Assembly: GCA_003225295.1 (NCBI GenBank)
Contig: QHYZ01000063.1
Location: 1-64,000, forward strand
Direction: 5' to 3'
Length of the DNA: 64,000 nucleotides
Source of the DNA: Acidobacteriota bacterium
GTDB lineage: Bacteria; Acidobacteriota; Terriglobia; Acidiferrales; UBA7541
Within the stretch, counting starts at the first letter, position 1. Each line of letters opens with the position of its first letter. Both the position numbers and the translations under genes were made by a program. Below are positions 8,618-40,081 of the stretch, piece after piece. The notes below the pieces were generated by a model. The model saw nothing but the letters and a program-made list of their open reading frames with translations, was not told where the DNA came from and did no database searches.

Positions 8618-9532
8618 TTAGTTTGTCTTTACCAGACTCTTCAGTGCGGTGGGCAAATCGGAGTGCAAGAACCTGTGGCCAAGTTTTTCAATGGCTCGAG
8701 GCAAGACGCGCTGGCTGGATAACAGTAGCGCGTCGGCCATTTCACCCAGCGCCAGCCGCAGCGCAAAAGTGGGGGCAGGAAAGAGCGCCGGCCGACGCAT
8801 CGCTTTCGCAAGCACCTTTGTGAATTCCACGTTTTGCAGCGGTTGCGGCGACACAATATTAATGGCGCCCCTCACCGGGGGGTTCTCGATCGCGAATCGC
8901 AAAATCCCGATGACGTCTTCGAGCGTCACCCACGACATCCACTGCCGCCCGGAACCCAGCTTCCCCCCCACGCCAATCTTGAATGGGAGCATCATCTTCG
9001 GCAGCGCACCGCCCTCGCGCGCCAAAATAATCCCGAACCGCGGGAGCACCACGCGAATCCCCAGGGCCTCGGCCTTCAGCGCTTCCGCTTCCCACTCCTG
9101 CGCTAGGCCCGCAAGAAAATCCCCACCCGGCTTGCTGTCCTCCGTCAGAGTTTCGTCGCCGCGATCGCCGTAATATCCAATCGCGGATGCGGACACCAGG
9201 ACGCTCGGGCGCGCATTCATCTTGGTCAGCGCTCCAACCAACGCGCGCGTTGTATCAATCCGACTTGAACCCAGCAGCGCTTTCCTTTGCGCTGTCCATC
9301 GCCCGTCCGCAATCGATGCACCTGCCAGGTTTACAACCGCATCGGCGCCCACGCCCGCGCCGCCCAATTCTCCCGTCGCCGGATTCCACGACACAACAAA
9401 CCCTTCTTTCGCCGCCTCGCCGCCAGCACTCTGCGGTCGAACCAACCGGCACACGGTATGCCCACCCCGCGCCAGCGCGCTCACCAGCGCGGTCCCCACC
9501 AGCCCCGACGAGCCCGTTACCAGAATCTTCAT
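8618..9532 (-). CDS. TIGR01777-family NAD(P)-dependent epimerase/oxidoreductase (YfcH-like)
   Basis: About 304 aa from the ATG at 9532, which has an AAGAGGA box just upstream and begins MKILVTGSSGLVG. That is the Rossmann dinucleotide motif GxxGxxG of extended short-chain dehydrogenases. YYGDRGDETLTE, SWVTLEDVIGILRFA and NIVSPQPLQN are typical of the SulA/YfcH branch, and the C-terminus carries the DUF1731-like tail (SSQRVLPRAIEKLGHRF). The physiological substrate of this family is unknown. It is convergent with the secreted-protein gene, with only 13 bases between the two stops. Confidence 0.88.
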   Translation of the reverse strand: MKILVTGSSGLVGTALVSALARGGHTVCRLVRPQSAGGEAAKEGFVVSWNPATGELGGAGVGADAVVNLAGASIADGRWTAQRKALLGSSRIDTTRALVGALTKMNARPSVLVSASAIGYYGDRGDETLTEDSKPGGDFLAGLAQEWEAEALKAEALGIRVVLPRFGIILAREGGALPKMMLPFKIGVGGKLGSGRQWMSWVTLEDVIGILRFAIENPPVRGAINIVSPQPLQNVEFTKVLAKAMRRPALFPAPTFALRLALGEMADALLLSSQRVLPRAIEKLGHRFLHSDLPTALKSLVKTN

Positions 9533-20587: not shown

Positions 20588-20980
20588 GTGAGCGAGAATG
20601 AAACTCTGATTTCGGCCGCGAGGCAAGCAAGGGAAAACGCGCATGCGCCGTACTCCAACTTTCGCGTCGGCGCGGCGCTGCGTGCCACTTCGGGAAAAAT
20701 CTTTGGCGGCTGCAACGTCGAGAACGCTACCTACGGCCTCACCGTTTGCGCCGAGCGCATCGCCATTTTCAAAGCCATCAGTGAAGGCGAGCGCGGGTTC
20801 GATGCTATTTCCGTCGTCACTGACACCGATGCCCTCACGCCTCCCTGCGGCGCTTGCCGCCAATTGATCTGGGAATTTTGCGGCGACATCCCCGTGATCA
20901 TGGCGAATCTGAAGGGCAGAGTGGAGATCATGCAGATGCAAAACCTCTTTCCTAGACCGTTTGATTCTTCCCATTTGTGA
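20588..20980 (+). CDS. cdd: cytidine deaminase
   Basis: About 130 aa from GTG 20588 (the open frame reaches back to 20537). It has the homotetrameric type signature: substrate loop NFRVGAAL, zinc motif CAERIAIFKA with catalytic Glu, and PPCGACRQLIWEF giving two more Cys ligands. It deaminates cytidine and deoxycytidine so that the products can be cleaved by the phosphorylase upstream. The stop overlaps the start of the downstream amidohydrolase by four bases. Confidence 0.95.
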   Translation: MSENETLISAARQARENAHAPYSNFRVGAALRATSGKIFGGCNVENATYGLTVCAERIAIFKAISEGERGFDAISVVTDTDALTPPCGACRQLIWEFCGDIPVIMANLKGRVEIMQMQNLFPRPFDSSHL

Positions 20981-22446
20981 TGAGACGAGGCATGACCGTG
21001 GAAATTGCAATTTGGAGATGCAAGGCTAATTTCGCAGCCGTTGCGCTCCTAATTTTCATTCTCAGTCTTCTATTTTCGGTTCGCCAACCCGCACAAACTG
21101 AGAAGCAGGCAATCAGCTTCGACCTCCTGGTCAAGAATGGAACCATTGTCACGATGGATGGGGAGCACCGTATCTTCGGAGACGGCGTGGTTGCCGTGCG
21201 GGGTGACGTGATCGCCTTTGTCGGCAAGAGCTCTGACTTTGTGCTGGGCCAGGTGAAAGGTGTTACCACCAGGCTGACCATCGATGCACGTGGAAAGCTC
21301 GTCTTGCCGGGATTTGTGAATGGCCATACGCATGTGCCCATGACCTTGCTCCGCGGTTTGCGTGACGACGTGCCCCTCGATGAATGGCTGCAGAAGTACA
21401 TCTTTCCGGCCGAAGCAAAGAACGTTACCGAGGATTTTGTCCGCTGGGGCACGCGGCTTGCGGCAGCCGAGCAAATTCGCGGTGGCATCACCACGTTTGC
21501 CGATATGTATTACTTTGAAGATGTCATTGCCGAGGAGACGAAAGCAGCAGGGATGCGCGCGGTGCTTGGCGAAACGGTCGTTGATTTCCCTGCACCGGAC
21601 AATAAGAACAACGAGACGATGCTCGAATATGCTGAGAAATTTCTGAAGCGCTGGCAAGGCGACCCGCTGATTCACACCGCGGTCGCGCCTCATGCGATTT
21701 ATACCTGTTCGCAAAAGACGCTTCAGGATTCAGCGGCGCTGGCGCGGAAGTACCGCGCGCGGATTCTCATCCACGTCGCAGAAATGAAAAAAGAGTTGGA
21801 CGACAGCCGCGCTCAGAACGGCACCACACCGGTACAGTATCTCGATAAGCTCGGTATTCTCGGGCCGGACATGGTGGCGGCGCACTGCATTTTTGTTGAC
21901 CAGACGGACCGCAGGATCCTGGCGCAGCGGCAAGTGGGTTGCGTGCACAATCCTTCCAGCAACATGATGTTGGCGAGCGGTGTTGCTCCGGTGATCGAAG
22001 AGCGCGCGGCCGGCGTAGCGGTCGGGCTGGGCACGGACGGGCCGGCGGGCAGCAACAACGATCTGGACTTGATGGAAGAGATGGACCTGGCGGCGAAGCT
22101 CCAGAAGGTCACCAAGATGGACCCGCAAGCGCTGGGGGCGAAGGCCGTCGTCGAAATGGCCACCATCGAGGGAGCGCGGGCGCTGCACATGGAGAAGGAA
22201 ATTGGTTCGCTCGAACCAGGGAAGAAAGCGGACTTTATTTTTATCGGCCTCGATGCGCCAAACGCTGTGCCGATGTATGACGTCTATGCGCAATTGGCGT
22301 ACGCTTTGAAGGGAAGCGATGTAGAGACGGTAATCATCGGCGGCCGCGTGGTGATGCGCGACAAAAAACTGCTCACCGTGGATGAAGCGGCCGTGATCGC
22401 CAAGGCGAGAGAGTTCAAGAACAAAATTGAGGCCTCGCTGAAGTAA
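20977..22446 (+). CDS. membrane-anchored or exported amidohydrolase (guanine/SAH deaminase-like)
   Basis: 489 aa. The TIM-barrel amidohydrolase metal sites are present: GHTHVPMTLLRG, HVAEMKKE, MVAAHCIFV and GTDGPAGSNND. This is the pattern of the MtaD/SsnA/TrzN deaminase branch, which acts on aminopyrimidine or purine substrates (S-adenosylhomocysteine, guanine, cytosine-like). Unusually for a normally cytosolic enzyme, residues about 18-37 form a strong hydrophobic segment, suggesting anchoring or export; an internal ATG at 20992 would retain it. It closes the nucleoside-salvage operon. Confidence 0.85.
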   Translation: MMRRGMTVEIAIWRCKANFAAVALLIFILSLLFSVRQPAQTEKQAISFDLLVKNGTIVTMDGEHRIFGDGVVAVRGDVIAFVGKSSDFVLGQVKGVTTRLTIDARGKLVLPGFVNGHTHVPMTLLRGLRDDVPLDEWLQKYIFPAEAKNVTEDFVRWGTRLAAAEQIRGGITTFADMYYFEDVIAEETKAAGMRAVLGETVVDFPAPDNKNNETMLEYAEKFLKRWQGDPLIHTAVAPHAIYTCSQKTLQDSAALARKYRARILIHVAEMKKELDDSRAQNGTTPVQYLDKLGILGPDMVAAHCIFVDQTDRRILAQRQVGCVHNPSSNMMLASGVAPVIEERAAGVAVGLGTDGPAGSNNDLDLMEEMDLAAKLQKVTKMDPQALGAKAVVEMATIEGARALHMEKEIGSLEPGKKADFIFIGLDAPNAVPMYDVYAQLAYALKGSDVETVIIGGRVVMRDKKLLTVDEAAVIAKAREFKNKIEASLK

Positions 22447-33763: not shown

Positions 33764-36481
33764 CTACTCATTTCTTAACGCCACCATCGGATCGAGCCGA
33801 GAGGCGCGCCGGGCGGGCAGGAAACTTGCCAAAGCCGCAAAGGCCGACAGGCTCGCCACTGCCAGGACGTAGGTGACAAAGTCGGTCGGCTTTAGTCCGA
33901 ACAACATCGCTGCGGCCACCCTGCTGCCTGCCAGGGACAGCGCCATTCCGATCAGCAGACCGAGGCCGAGCAAAACGGAAGCTTCCCGCAGCACCAGGTG
34001 CACAATGCTTGCGCAATCCGCTCCCAACGCCATGCGAACACCGATTTCGCTGGTCCTCCGTTCCACCATGCAGGTGATCACCCCGTACAAGCCTACGCTG
34101 GCCAGGAGCACAGCCAGCAGTCCAAAGAATCCGGAAAGGTGGGCCATCAGGCGGTCTCGCTGAAGAGACACTTCCACCATACTGTCGAACGGCGTAAAGT
34201 CCATGTCAATCCCGCGATTGATTTGCTGGACGGTGCTCTTCAATACGGAGATGAGGCCGAAGAGCGAAGCCTGGGATCGAATGAGGATGGTCACGTCCTG
34301 CTCGGGGTGTTCCTTCTGGGTGACCGGCATGAACATCGTGGGCAGATATTCTCTTCCCGCAGATCGTAAAGTTTGGCATCTTTCGCTAGTCCGACGATCT
34401 GGAATAGACCGGTCTCTTTGCTTTCCGACTTTACGCGCAACGTGGCACCGACCGGATTTGCCCCGGCGAGATACTTGCTGGCAAAACTCTCATTGACGAT
34501 GGTCACCTTGGGCGATGTCAACGTATCGCGATCGTCAAAATCCCGCCCGCCAGAATCGGCGTATGCCACGTCGCGAAGTACTTTGGGCTGATCTCGTTCA
34601 GCTCGCTCTTGCCCTCGATGACCTGTCCGGCCCTGTCCACCAGCACTTGCCGGTTCATTCCCTTGCCGCTCAGCGGGACGATTCCTGCTTCAGCGGCAGA
34701 CTCCACGCCGGGAATCGCTCGAACCCGCCGCAGCACCAGCCCCTTAAATTCCGCGCGTCGGTCGACGGGTAAATGGAGCGCAGTCAGGTCCAGATCCAGC
34801 TCCAGCACCCCGTTTTGCGTGAATCCCGCATCCAGCGTCGCCAGTTTTTGCAGGCTCCTCGCAAAGAGAATCGCCCCAACAACCAGCATGAGCGACATGG
34901 CGATCTGCGAAACCACGAGAACGCGCCGCAACCCAAACCGTGCTCGACCGCTCGTGGCGCTCCGTCCGCTCGACTTTTGCACCGCTCCCGGGGACACTCG
35001 CGTTGCCCGCAACGCCGGAGCCAGCCCAAACAGGACACACGTCAGCACGGTGATCCCTGAGGTGAATCCCAGCAATCGCCAATCCATGGCCAGGTCCACA
35101 AACAGGGGAGCGCTGTCTGTGCTGATCGAAGCCACCAGCAAGCGAGTCAATCCATGCGCGAGTTGAGCGCCCAGGAGCGCACCTGTAAGACCAAGGAGCA
35201 GGCTTTCCGCCAGCAATTGCCGGATCAATCGGCCTCTGGTCGCCCCTACAGCCATGCGCATGCCCATTTCCCGTTCGCGGGCACTGGCCCGCGCCAGCAT
35301 CAGGTGGCTAGATTCGCCGAAGCAATCAGCAGTACCAGCGCCCCCAGCCCCAGCATCAGCCAGAGTGGGTCCTCGTACGTCTCGCGCAAGCCAGAGATAC
35401 CTGTACCGGCAGGAAAGGCCCCGAGTTTGTAGCCGAGAAAGTGTTTGGCATCGCCAGGGTCGAACTCGGAAGGCAACGTAGCCTCGAAAATTGCTGGCGA
35501 AATCGCGCGTAAGTGCGCCGATGCTTTCTCCATGGTCCAGCCGGGCTTCCGTCTGCCCATCACTGTGAGCCACCAGCCATCTCGCCGGTTCAGCACGCTG
35601 AACTCGCTGCGAATCGTAGGTTCCGCGCAGAGGGGCACGGCTACATCGAAGTTCCGTCCGACCTCCACACCGTAGAAACTCGCCGGCGCCACTCCGGTTA
35701 CTTCGAAGGGATGCTTCTCAATGGTGATCTTGCGTCCGACGATAAATTCGTCGCCACCGTACTCACGCTGCCAGAAGGCGTGGCTGACGACTACTCCGGG
35801 AGAGGCACACTCGGCGCGGTCATCCTCAGGCAAAAGGAATCGTCCTCTTTCGGGCACAATTCCCAATACGCCAAAGAATTCACCGCTCACCCAAAGGCCC
35901 TGGACGGGGTGGACTGGGCCGCCGGGAGAGATATTGAAGCTCGTTGGTCCCCAGGCGAATACGCCCGAGAGCGCCTGCTGCTGCGCTCGAATCTGGCTCC
36001 ACATGGGGTTTGTCAGATTGGGATAGCGCGACACGAAGGCACCGGTTGCACCGTTGCGTTCCGCGATGCGCACCTCGGTCAGTTCCTGAGCGTTTTTTAC
36101 CGGGAGCGCTCTTAGACGAATCGCATCCAAGAGCTGGAAGATGGCGGTGTTGGCTCCAATGCCTAGCGCCAGAGATAAAATCGCTGCGGCCTCAAAAGCA
36201 GGACTGAATCGCAGCAGTCGCAAACCAAACTTCAGATCCTGCCAGAGTGTTTCCACCAGCGACTCCCAGCTCGCCGCACGGACTCGTTGTTTTACACTCT
36301 CCGCGCCGCCCATCTCGATACGCGCGGCCCGCACCGCTTGTTCGCGGTCTAACCCGCGGCGCATCTTCTCGTTCACGGCGGCGTCCAGATACCCGCGCAG
36401 TTCCTCATCCATTTCGCGTTCTACCTGTTGCTTGCGGAACAATCCCCGCAGACCACCCGCCAGATTTCGCAGCAGTGACAT
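33764..36481 (-). pseudogene. MacB/FtsX-type permease (acidobacterial orphan permease), frameshifted
   Basis: Translations in three reading frames join into one complete ADOP-like permease of about 800 aa. It runs from a MSLLRNLAGGLRG start and MacB-type periplasmic domain, through the first FtsX helices (SANLA, then LMLARASARERE), to the C-terminal FtsX part ending PARRASRLDPM. Continuity needs three single-base deletions on the coding strand, near 35303, 34550 and 34345. Apart from these there are no stops, so decay is recent or the assembly has errors. Upstream lies the usual PadR partner. Confidence 0.85.
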
Positions 36482-36491
36482 CGCTTACCTC

Positions 36492-36827
36492 CTACGACTC
36501 CGCCTCGAGAATCCGCGCGATAGCCGCTGCTTGTCTCGCCCATTCGCGGGTCTCGCCCTTGAGCTGTTTGCGCCCGAGCGCTTGCAAAACGTAATACTTA
36601 GCGCGCCGATTGTTCGCAGTGTCCCGCCATTCGCTCTTGAGCCAGCCGGCCCGTTCCAGCCTGCGGAATGCCGGAAACAACGATCCCGGATTCACCTGGA
36701 AGACGCCTTTACTGATCTGCTCGATACGCATGGCGATACCATATCCATGCATCGGCTCCAGCTCCAATGTTTTCAGGATCAACATGTCCAGCGTGCCCTG
36801 AACCAGGCCGCTCGGCTTGTCCGCCAT
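36492..36827 (-). CDS. PadR-family transcriptional regulator
   Basis: 111 aa, with AGGAG eight bases before the ATG at 36827. The winged-helix N-terminus is typical: GTLDMLILKTLELEPMHGYGIAMRIEQIS, followed by FPAFRRLERAGWLKSEW. Acidobacteria often have such a gene directly upstream of MacB/FtsX-type permeases, as here (ten bases). It probably represses the permease; with that gene broken, its local role may be lost while the regulator remains intact. Confidence 0.9.
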   Translation of the reverse strand: MADKPSGLVQGTLDMLILKTLELEPMHGYGIAMRIEQISKGVFQVNPGSLFPAFRRLERAGWLKSEWRDTANNRRAKYYVLQALGRKQLKGETREWARQAAAIARILEAES

Positions 36828-36917: not shown

Positions 36918-37322
36918 ATGCCATTCATTCCGCGGTACGATCTACGTGTGCCAGATGGTGTGAAAAGGATCGGTTTAATTTCGGATACCCACGGCTTACT
37001 GCGCAAAGAAGCAGTGGAAGCCCTGCGTGGGTCGGAGCTGATCATCCACGCAGGAGACGTGGGGAAGCCGGCAGGCGCGGCCATGATCTACGTTCTACAC
37101 AATGTGAACGCCCTGGATTTGAATCCTGCCGCAGCCGGTTTTCAAATCGTCGTCAGTGGCCATTCCCACAAACCAGGAAAGACGGAGCGCGAGGGCGTGC
37201 TCTATGTCAACCCTGGAAGCGCGGGACCGCGCAGATTTCAATTACCGGTCACGGTGGCACATCTGCGATTGGGAGGGATACCGTACGACGTGGAGTTCGT
37301 GGATCTCGAACCATCCCGGTAA
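36918..37322 (+). CDS. YfcE/MJ0936-type metallophosphoesterase with internal deletion
   Basis: 134 aa from ATG 36918 (GTG 36960 gives a typical MKRIGLISDTHG start). Present: the DxH site ISDTHG, the next Asp in HAGDVG, and the C-terminal VSGHSHKP and VNPGSAGP. Family members are about 155-165 aa and carry a GN(H/D) motif in the middle. Here the reading jumps, in frame, from HAGDVGKPAG directly to MIYVLHNV, so about 30 residues including that metal ligand are missing. It is probably inactive. Frame is kept and no stop is visible. Confidence 0.8.
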   Translation: MPFIPRYDLRVPDGVKRIGLISDTHGLLRKEAVEALRGSELIIHAGDVGKPAGAAMIYVLHNVNALDLNPAAAGFQIVVSGHSHKPGKTEREGVLYVNPGSAGPRRFQLPVTVAHLRLGGIPYDVEFVDLEPSR

Positions 37323-37475
37323 CCCCAGCGGCACGGCCTGCGCAGACACGGATGCGCCGCTCTAGGCAGCTCAATCGGCGCCATCAACGGAAGACCAACA
37401 GAAGGCGTGGGTTTCTGGGTTTGGCGCACAGACATTCCTGCATGACAATTTCGTCTTTGTCACGTTGCGTGACTC

Positions 37476-38489
37476 TTAATGTGAAGCAGGAACCCACGCA
37501 AGGCCATCGACGCCCGGAGTGAGGTCGATAGGCGGCTGCATTATCCAGGAGCGCAGGTCGAGCACGGCGATTTTGCCGGCACCGGTCCCGCTCACGTAGG
37601 CGATTTCTCCGCCCGGTCGAATCAGGATTTCCGAGGATCTCTCCGGAACTTCCAGTGAACGCACCACCTTCAGAGTGCGCAAATCCACGACATGGAGCCG
37701 ATTGGCGCCAAGGCTGACGGCCAGCAACCAGCGCCCATCGGGAGTCGGCGCCGACGCATACGCCACGTCCGGCAATTCGATCCAGTTCGTAATTTTGTTC
37801 GTAGCCGTCGCGATGACCGCGATGCGGGGAGCACCTTGATCGTGGGTGAAGATGCGGAGGCCATCTGGTGAGATGGAAATGCGCTGAACACTCTTTGCCA
37901 CGGGAATCGTGGCAAGGAGATTGCGCTTCACCAGATCGAGCACGCTCACGCTGCCGGCGCTGACGTTGGCGGTGTAACCGCGGTGGCCGTCGAGCGAAAG
38001 AACCAGCATGTGGGATTGCGGCTCCCCCGTCGGAATTTCCGCGACCAGCTTGCGCGTGGAAGGATCAATAACGCCGACGGCATTTGCAAGCTCGGCGGTG
38101 ACGTAAAGAAGACCATCGGGCCCGAATTCGGCGCGGTGCGGGCGAAGGGGCTTACCCAGGTCGATCGTGGCCGCGAGTTTGCGCGCCTGCAGATCAATCA
38201 CATCAATCGTGCTGCCGTCCGTCCCAGGCCTTCCGACGCCAGCGTTTCCGTAGATCGGAACGTAAGCAAAGCGACCGTCTTGGGACACGATGACCTCATG
38301 TCCGTTCACGCCCACAGAAATCTTTGCCAGTTCACGGCGATTTTCGGGATCGACGACCACTAGGGTGTGCTCCTTCTGATTGGCCACGACCAACAGACCG
38401 CCCGCAGGTGACGCTACTCTTGCGTCTCGTAGCTCAGATGAAGCGACAACCATCATGGAAGCAAGGAGCAGTGATAGGCGTACCAGCAT
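37476..38489 (-). CDS. secreted YVTN-type beta-propeller protein
   Basis: 337 aa with an N-terminal signal segment (residues about 1-20). Repeated blades of about 40 residues follow, each with an xVxDL or VIDP turn (VVVDPENRREL, VIDLQARKLAAT, GVIDPSTRKLVAEI, VLDLVKRNLLATI). Propellers of this kind bind partners or metals and are mostly of unknown role in this phylum. No neighbour suggests a substrate. Confidence 0.82.
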   Translation of the reverse strand: MLVRLSLLLASMMVVASSELRDARVASPAGGLLVVANQKEHTLVVVDPENRRELAKISVGVNGHEVIVSQDGRFAYVPIYGNAGVGRPGTDGSTIDVIDLQARKLAATIDLGKPLRPHRAEFGPDGLLYVTAELANAVGVIDPSTRKLVAEIPTGEPQSHMLVLSLDGHRGYTANVSAGSVSVLDLVKRNLLATIPVAKSVQRISISPDGLRIFTHDQGAPRIAVIATATNKITNWIELPDVAYASAPTPDGRWLLAVSLGANRLHVVDLRTLKVVRSLEVPERSSEILIRPGGEIAYVSGTGAGKIAVLDLRSWIMQPPIDLTPGVDGLAWVPASH

Positions 38490-38974: not shown

Positions 38975-39047
38975 GAGCAAGATTCTAGGACAAAGAGAGG
39001 CTTGCTTCAATCGACGAGACGGCATCTCCCCCGACGTCGCTTCCGGG

Positions 39048-40081
39048 TCATCCTTCCCAAGCGATCTCCTTCACCGGGCCAATCACAAAGAAATAAGAAA
39101 CAGCAGCGAGCAGTGCGACGAAAGCCATGATCACGAATGCCACGAAGAACCGTCCGGTGTAATCGATTACGAATCCGGTCACTGCCGGCGCGCTGACACC
39201 GGGCAAGATTTCCGAGGGAATTCTGCCAGCCCGTCCATCGGCCCGCCATTCTCGGACCGGCCAGCGTTTGTGTGATCGCCAAATATTGGATCCGCACATG
39301 CCACCGGCTGCGAACGCTAGTAGCAGCAGAATAACAGAGACCGTGGGACCGGCGAGGGTGCAGCCAAGGAGGAATAGCCCGGCAGTCCCCGCTCCGGCAC
39401 GCGCAAAAGTTTTGCGAACAAGAGTCGGCGATCCACCGGTCGGAGATCCAACCGAAAACTACCGCGGCAGCCGCGTAGCACAAGTATCCCAGCCCGCCAA
39501 TTTTCGCCATCGTACCCATCGAAAGGTGGCGCTCACGCACCAGATAAAATGGCAGCCAGGTGATCTCGAAGTACAGCACGTAGTTTGCGCCGAACAGGCC
39601 CCCGCAGGTTCCCCACATCGATCGTTGCATCAGGAGTTCGAGAAATCCTGCGCCGCTTTGTTCTACGCGGGAAACGACGGTACGTCCTAGCGGGATCCAT
39701 GCGAACCAGGGAACCAGCAGGCCATGCTGACGACGCCAAGAACGATGAAGAAGGAACGCCATCCGAATCGCGCCAAGAGCGTGCCCCCGAAAAATGTGCC
39801 CAAGGCCGGGCCGCATCCAACTCCGGCAGCGATGGGCGCGTTTGCAAATCCACGGCCCACCTCCGGAACGTGTCGCACCAGCATTCTCGCATAGCAGGGA
39901 TAGGCTTTCAGCAAAGGTGCGGCGATGGAGAGGCTACCGCGATCGATGTAATTGATAAGGGCGGAAAGAGCCAGGAGCGCAATCGCCCGCGTGGCCGGAC
40001 GCGAAAGCCTGCTGTTCTCGTTGGCGGGTGCGGTGGGCAAGTGTGAACGCCGGACATTTCTTTCCGTCCGGGTGTCTTCAT
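39048..40081 (-). pseudogene. MFS transporter, frameshifted with internal deletion
   Basis: Pieces of one major-facilitator protein occur in successive frames. ATRAIALLALSALINYIDRG (helix 1) is followed in frame by YPCYARMLVRHVPEV, skipping about 80 residues of helices 2-4 near 39905. Then come VPWFAWIPLGRTVV (shift near 39720), TFARAGAGTAGLFLLG (shift near 39420), AITQTLAGPRMAGRWTGWQN (near 39283) and APAVTGFVIDYTGRFF (near 39215). A further shift near the N-terminus is needed for the ATG at 40081. It is clearly dead. It follows the S9 peptidase gene by ten bases. Confidence 0.9.

What the first reader, a model, noticed from the sequence alone, without database searches (positions are those of the whole stretch)
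36918..37322. Metallophosphoesterase that has lost the GN(H/D) motif through an in-frame deletion
DxH, the GD-type Asp, and GHSH motifs are present, but the segment that should hold the GN(H/D) metal ligand, about 30 residues, is gone and the reading continues in frame. This would remove a bridging or catalytic ligand while leaving a protein. It may be inactive, or a binding-only derivative.
Basis: partly seen in the sequence, partly recalled or inferred. Interest (0 to 1): 0.5.

Follow-up and report, generated by a model that had tools for sequence, protein, structure and literature searches.

The report
Phosphoesterase gene broken by recent deletion
A common bacterial phosphodiesterase gene has lost a 105-base piece holding a catalytic motif in this one soil bacterium, most likely an ordinary, recently disabled gene and not a new kind of protein.

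Summary
The nearest genome, G015 (94% and 97% identical DNA on either side of the gap), has the complete gene in the same place. All 27 genus orthologues read keep the motif. Of 127 matched genomes among 299 of the class, only the window's has no match across the motif's positions. "Inactive" is likely; "binding-only derivative" has no support. The missing stretch also holds two helices and two strands, and model confidence is lower (pLDDT 76 against 94 for an intact relative). The short form was seen once. Elsewhere in the genus the gene is truncated (G035) or unmatched (7 of 36), and G024 has a damaged second copy. Two nearby genes, an ADOP permease and an MFS transporter, are broken, while 30 of 39 compared ORFs are intact. 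One in three random deletions keeps frame, so the open frame is no sign of function. Best explanation: a recent null allele, an early pseudogene, of a dispensable phosphodiesterase. Misassembly is not excluded without reads. Low interest.

The parts
36984..36992 (+). DTH motif (metal ligands D, H)
   Evidence: invariant in the 38 intact relatives of A3
37053..37058 (+). GD motif (bridging Asp)
37070..37072 (+). deletion junction 37071/37072: 105 bp present in G015 are absent
37098..37100 (+). lone metal-ligand His (H61)
37158..37169 (+). GHSH motif
33767..36568 (-). broken neighbour: ADOP-family MacB/FtsX permease, split over three frames (938 aa in one frame in G028)
36492..36827 (-). PadR-family regulator, unbroken, divergent neighbour
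37476..38489 (-). beta-propeller protein, unbroken, convergent neighbour
39036..40073 (-). broken MFS transporter: 77 residues missing in frame at 39905/39906, then frame changes

Best explanation
A recent 105-bp deletion, specific to this lineage among the genomes seen, in a dispensable YfcE-family phosphodiesterase gene. Shown: the deletion, its absence from every orthologue whose motif was read, and truncation or absence of the gene in some other genomes of the genus. Inferred: the product, if made, cannot hold the di-metal centre (it lacks the GN Asn ligand and the following acidic residue), probably folds poorly, and the locus is an early pseudogene that still reads through only because 105 is a multiple of three.
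For: G015 has the complete gene at the same place. In the genus, 27 of 36 genomes have a match along the gene, 1 (the window's) has the deletion, 1 is truncated (G035) and 7 have no match at E up to 0.001; 5 of those 7 are listed as at least 90% complete. RGNxD is in 27 of 27 genus loci read (28 of 28 with one locus, L030, of another family), and [RK]GNxD in 80 of 80 named-genome loci, the best 80 kept of 554. In the class, 126 of 127 matched genomes (299 searched) have a match that spans the motif's positions; the window's genome alone does not (ranges from the table, residues not read). The removed stretch holds nearly all of helix 41-48, strand 53-56, helix 64-67 and strand 72-77 of the intact relative L060. 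AF2 gives 93.7 pLDDT / 0.90 pTM for L060 and 76.2 / 0.74 for the window protein, under 50 at the junction. Other damage in the genus: G035 (L053), a second copy in G024:C48 (L054), a 32-residue match in G018:C77. Two broken genes nearby. G000 has four other PF12850 matches, none of them found with this protein as the query. Rv0805 N97A is reported as catalytically inactive (PMC3776917, passages; that N97 is the GN Asn is recalled).
Against: Apart from the deletion the frame is undamaged. Of four codon differences from G015 in the 119 retained codons, two are derived in G015 and two are ambiguous; none is clearly derived in the window. So there is no sign of accumulated decay: the allele is very young or still constrained, and the data cannot choose. 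Expression is unknown.
Confidence: 0.8

Rival explanations
1. Assembly or consensus artefact: the organism has the complete gene and the contig is wrongly joined.
For: G000 is in 385 contigs and no reads were available.
Against: In a 180-base stretch of G015 around the deletion the longest exact repeat is 8 bp, and no repeat of 6 bp or more has its two copies at the two breakpoints, so an overlap misjoin is hard to obtain (inference, if the window's organism is like G015 there). The assembly is not generally poor: of 39 G015 ORFs of at least 120 aa with a match of 55% identity or more, 30 are single-frame, without stops and over 85% covered in the window. In G000, tblastn with this protein found no further match better than E 0.059.
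Confidence: 0.14
2. A catalytically dead but retained binding protein (VPS29-like scaffold or metal/nucleotide sensor).
For: Open frame kept; DxH, GD, His and GHSH kept. The family includes VPS29, a non-enzymatic scaffold (PMC3101248, passages), and catalysis-independent effects of Rv0805 were shown with the inactive N97A form (PMC3776917, passages).
Against: Those are a natural member and a point mutant, without such a deletion; here core strands and helices go with the motif. The form occurs in one genome only, and I saw no candidate partner gene beside it (not searched for systematically).
Confidence: 0.04
3. A shortened enzyme that remains active with other ligands.
For: Six other motif residues remain.
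Against: N and D of GNxD are invariant in the 38 intact relatives of A3, and the alignment shows no replacement motif at the junction.
Confidence: 0.02

Closest known systems
YfcE / MJ0936 phosphodiesterases (COG0622, TIGR00040, PF12850)
   Same: Homologous along both retained parts; DxH, GD, H and GHxH. The G015 orthologue scores over the TIGR00040 (84.4 against 56.25) and PF12850 (120.3 against 27) cut-offs. Solved relatives found with the intact profile include MJ0936, TM1076, YfcE and VPS29.
   Different: Lacks the 35 residues with GNxD, two helices and two strands; the short protein falls just under the TIGR00040 cut-off (54.4 against 56.25 bits).
VPS29 (retromer scaffold)
   Same: Same fold family as the intact relative; a non-enzymatic member.
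   Different: VPS29 has no such deletion; its solved structures align along the intact relative.
Bacterial pseudogenes made by internal deletion
   Same: Internal deletion seen in one lineage of a gene that relatives also lack or have broken; the MFS neighbour shows the same kind of exact in-frame loss beside frame changes.
   Different: No second disabling change in this gene yet.

Membership tests
YfcE/MJ0936 phosphodiesterase | sequence similarity over the family's cut-off | tested here: inconclusive
   PF12850 73.7 bits over cut-off 27; TIGR00040 54.4 bits, under 56.25
YfcE/MJ0936 phosphodiesterase | DxH and GD motifs | tested here: met
YfcE/MJ0936 phosphodiesterase | GN(H/C/x)D motif | tested here: not met
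   absent in the window; present in 27 of 27 genus loci read
YfcE/MJ0936 phosphodiesterase | lone His and GHxH motifs | tested here: met
YfcE/MJ0936 phosphodiesterase | complete alpha/beta-sandwich fold | tested here: not met
   two helices and two strands of the intact relative fall in the deleted stretch; the model of the short protein has lower confidence
YfcE/MJ0936 phosphodiesterase | Mn-dependent phosphodiesterase activity | not testable with these tools
   needs purified protein
Pseudogene | disabling change against intact orthologues | tested here: met
   that the change disables is inferred
Pseudogene | relaxed selection after the change | tested here: inconclusive
   too few differences
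VPS29-like scaffold | complete fold with lost catalysis | tested here: not met

The most novel reading that the evidence does not exclude
The short protein is a retained, non-enzymatic mini-phosphoesterase whose remaining half-site binds one metal or a partner, fixed in this species by selection.
Probability: 0.03. Interest if true: 0.4.

Novelty: new member of a known kind. Interest (0 to 1): 0.1.

Why it matters
Little beyond annotation: the gene should be flagged as a probable pseudogene and not annotated as a phosphodiesterase. If the short form proved stable and conserved, it would be a small test of how much of the metallophosphoesterase core can be removed.

Tried and rejected
Shared short form in relatives: none found in 36 genus genomes, in 299 class genomes or in the 80 named loci kept of 554.

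Intact second copy in G000: none found; the next matches have E 0.059 and 0.45. The other PF12850 matches are different proteins, three of them with GN motifs (GNTD, GNHD, GNHE) and one with GEHD.

Slippage between direct repeats: the longest exact repeat in the 180-base G015 stretch is an 8-bp pair. Its first copy lies over the left breakpoint, but the second ends 15 bp before the right one, so simple slippage does not give this junction. A gapped near-repeat at the breakpoints is no better than chance (131 of 500 shuffles as good). Mechanism left open.

Selection between G000 and G015: 1 synonymous and 3 non-synonymous differences, pN/pS 1.03, against 0.39 and 0.36 for the propeller and YjbR neighbours; four changes give no power. 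MAFFT shows 36 gap columns where direct counting gives 35 codons.

In-frame gaps elsewhere: against the G015 ORFs only this gene shows a gap of 10 or more residues inside one match, but against more distant relatives other window genes show gaps of 11, 14 and 18 residues (G027 and G011 ORFs). Such gaps are therefore not unique to this gene; these were not followed up.

Structure as proof of misfolding: AF2 is not reliable for deletion variants, so searches are support only. Both models used alignments with 38 of the 80 loci, picked by me.

Papers: a search holding at least 3 of 'in-frame deletion', 'pseudogene', 'Acidobacteria', 'metallophosphoesterase' gave two listings, not on this subject by title. 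One search's long alignment and one search's translations had minus-strand loci the wrong way round; redid them.

Full report
What is there. The reading frame at 36918-37322 gives 134 residues that match Pfam PF12850 in two pieces (73.7 bits) and NCBIfam TIGR00040 (YfcE) just under its cut-off (54.4 against 56.25 bits). DTH, GD, a lone His and GHSH are present; GN(x)D is not. Five relatives have ATG where the window has GTG at 36948, so the true start is probably 36948. The organism is probably an uncultured soil acidobacterium of group 2: contigs of two genus members have the same lengths as named gp2 records (G032:C377 and QHYM01000354.1, 10,930; G017:C20 and QHYI01000129.1, 132,661). This is an inference.

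The deletion. The nearest genome, G015, carries the complete gene in the same place. DNA identity is 93.9% and 96.6% over the two blocks on either side of the gap, and 87-99% over pieces further out. Aligned with it, the window lacks exactly 105 bp (35 codons) after base 37071, with no other gap in the gene. Orthologous ORFs of five genomes of the genus match along the window in largely the same order.

How unusual it is. In the genus, 29 of 36 genomes match at E up to 0.001: 27 along the gene (one, G025, at a contig end), the window's own with the gap, and G035, whose match stops shortly after the GN motif; 7 have no match, of which 5 are listed as at least 90% complete. The 27 genus loci all read RGNxD, as does one locus of another family (28 of 28), and 80 of 80 named loci read [RK]GNxD, the best 80 kept of 554. 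In the class, 127 of 299 genomes match at E up to 1e-12. In 126 of these a match spans the motif's positions, by the ranges in the table; the window's genome is the exception. One of the 126, G302, was read: it has GNIE, with a change of frame and masked bases around it. The short form is private to this genome among those seen.

What is lost. In A3 (38 intact relatives) D and H of DxH, D of GD, G, N and D of GNxD, the lone His and both His of GHxH are invariant. The deleted stretch corresponds to residues 42-76 of L060, which in its model hold nearly all of a helix (41-48), a strand (53-56), the motif, a second helix (64-67) and a strand (72-77). AF2 gives 93.7 pLDDT and 0.90 pTM for L060, and 76.2 and 0.74 for the window protein, with under 50 at the junction. 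Against MJ0936 (1s3l) the TM-score by query length is 0.81 for L060 and 0.64 for the window protein. VPS29 is a non-enzymatic relative (PMC3101248, passages). In the wider superfamily the Rv0805 mutant N97A is reported as catalytically inactive (PMC3776917, passages); that N97 is the GN Asn is recalled. The motif order of class III phosphodiesterases and the activity of YfcE are from PMC4320098 (passages).

Context of decay. The ADOP permease (938 aa in one frame in G028) lies in three frames in the window, and only short pieces of it match in G015 and G011. The MFS transporter (single frame in G028, G013 and G027) lacks 77 residues by an exact in-frame loss at 39905/39906 and then changes frame. 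So a clean in-frame loss occurs here in a gene that is otherwise clearly broken. The assembly is not generally poor: of 44 G015 ORFs of 120 aa or more, 39 have a match of 55% identity or more in the window, and 30 of these are single-frame, without stops and over 85% covered. The other 9 are this gene, one cut by the window's end, and seven with partial cover, a stop or a frame change; some of these may be shadow ORFs, and I did not sort them. Against G015 this gene alone has a gap of 10 or more residues within one match. Against the more distant G027 and G011, gaps of 11, 14 and 18 residues occur in other window genes. In other genomes, G024:C48 holds a second, damaged copy (two stops) and G018:C77 a 32-residue match.

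Selection. Over the 119 retained codons there are 1 synonymous and 3 non-synonymous differences from G015. Two non-synonymous ones are derived in G015; the third and the synonymous one are ambiguous. No test of constraint after the deletion is possible; the deletion is young or the sequence is still constrained.

Verdict. It is best read as a recent null allele, an early pseudogene, of a dispensable YfcE-family gene. The binding-only reading is possible but rests only on an open frame, which a third of deletions would keep, and on retained motifs that a young deletion would leave anyway. An artefact needs reads to exclude.

Noticed in passing
window 33767-36568 (-): ADOP-family MacB/FtsX permease broken over three frames in the window; only short pieces match in G015 and G011; in one frame in G028.
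   Followed up: partly
window 39036-40073 (-): MFS transporter, clearly broken: exact 77-residue in-frame loss at 39905/39906 followed by frame changes.
   Followed up: partly
window about 37340-37389: About 50 bp of intergenic sequence just downstream of the gene is present in the window and absent from G015.
   Followed up: no
L053 (G035:C17), L054 (G024:C48), L055 (G018:C77): Truncated orthologue in G035, a damaged second copy in G024 and a short match in G018: the family is damaged more than once in the genus.
   Followed up: partly
window 8630-9532, 20845-22443: Two further window genes show in-frame gaps of 18, and of 11 or 14, residues against relatives G027 and G011; these may be ordinary length differences.
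   Followed up: no
   Followed up: no
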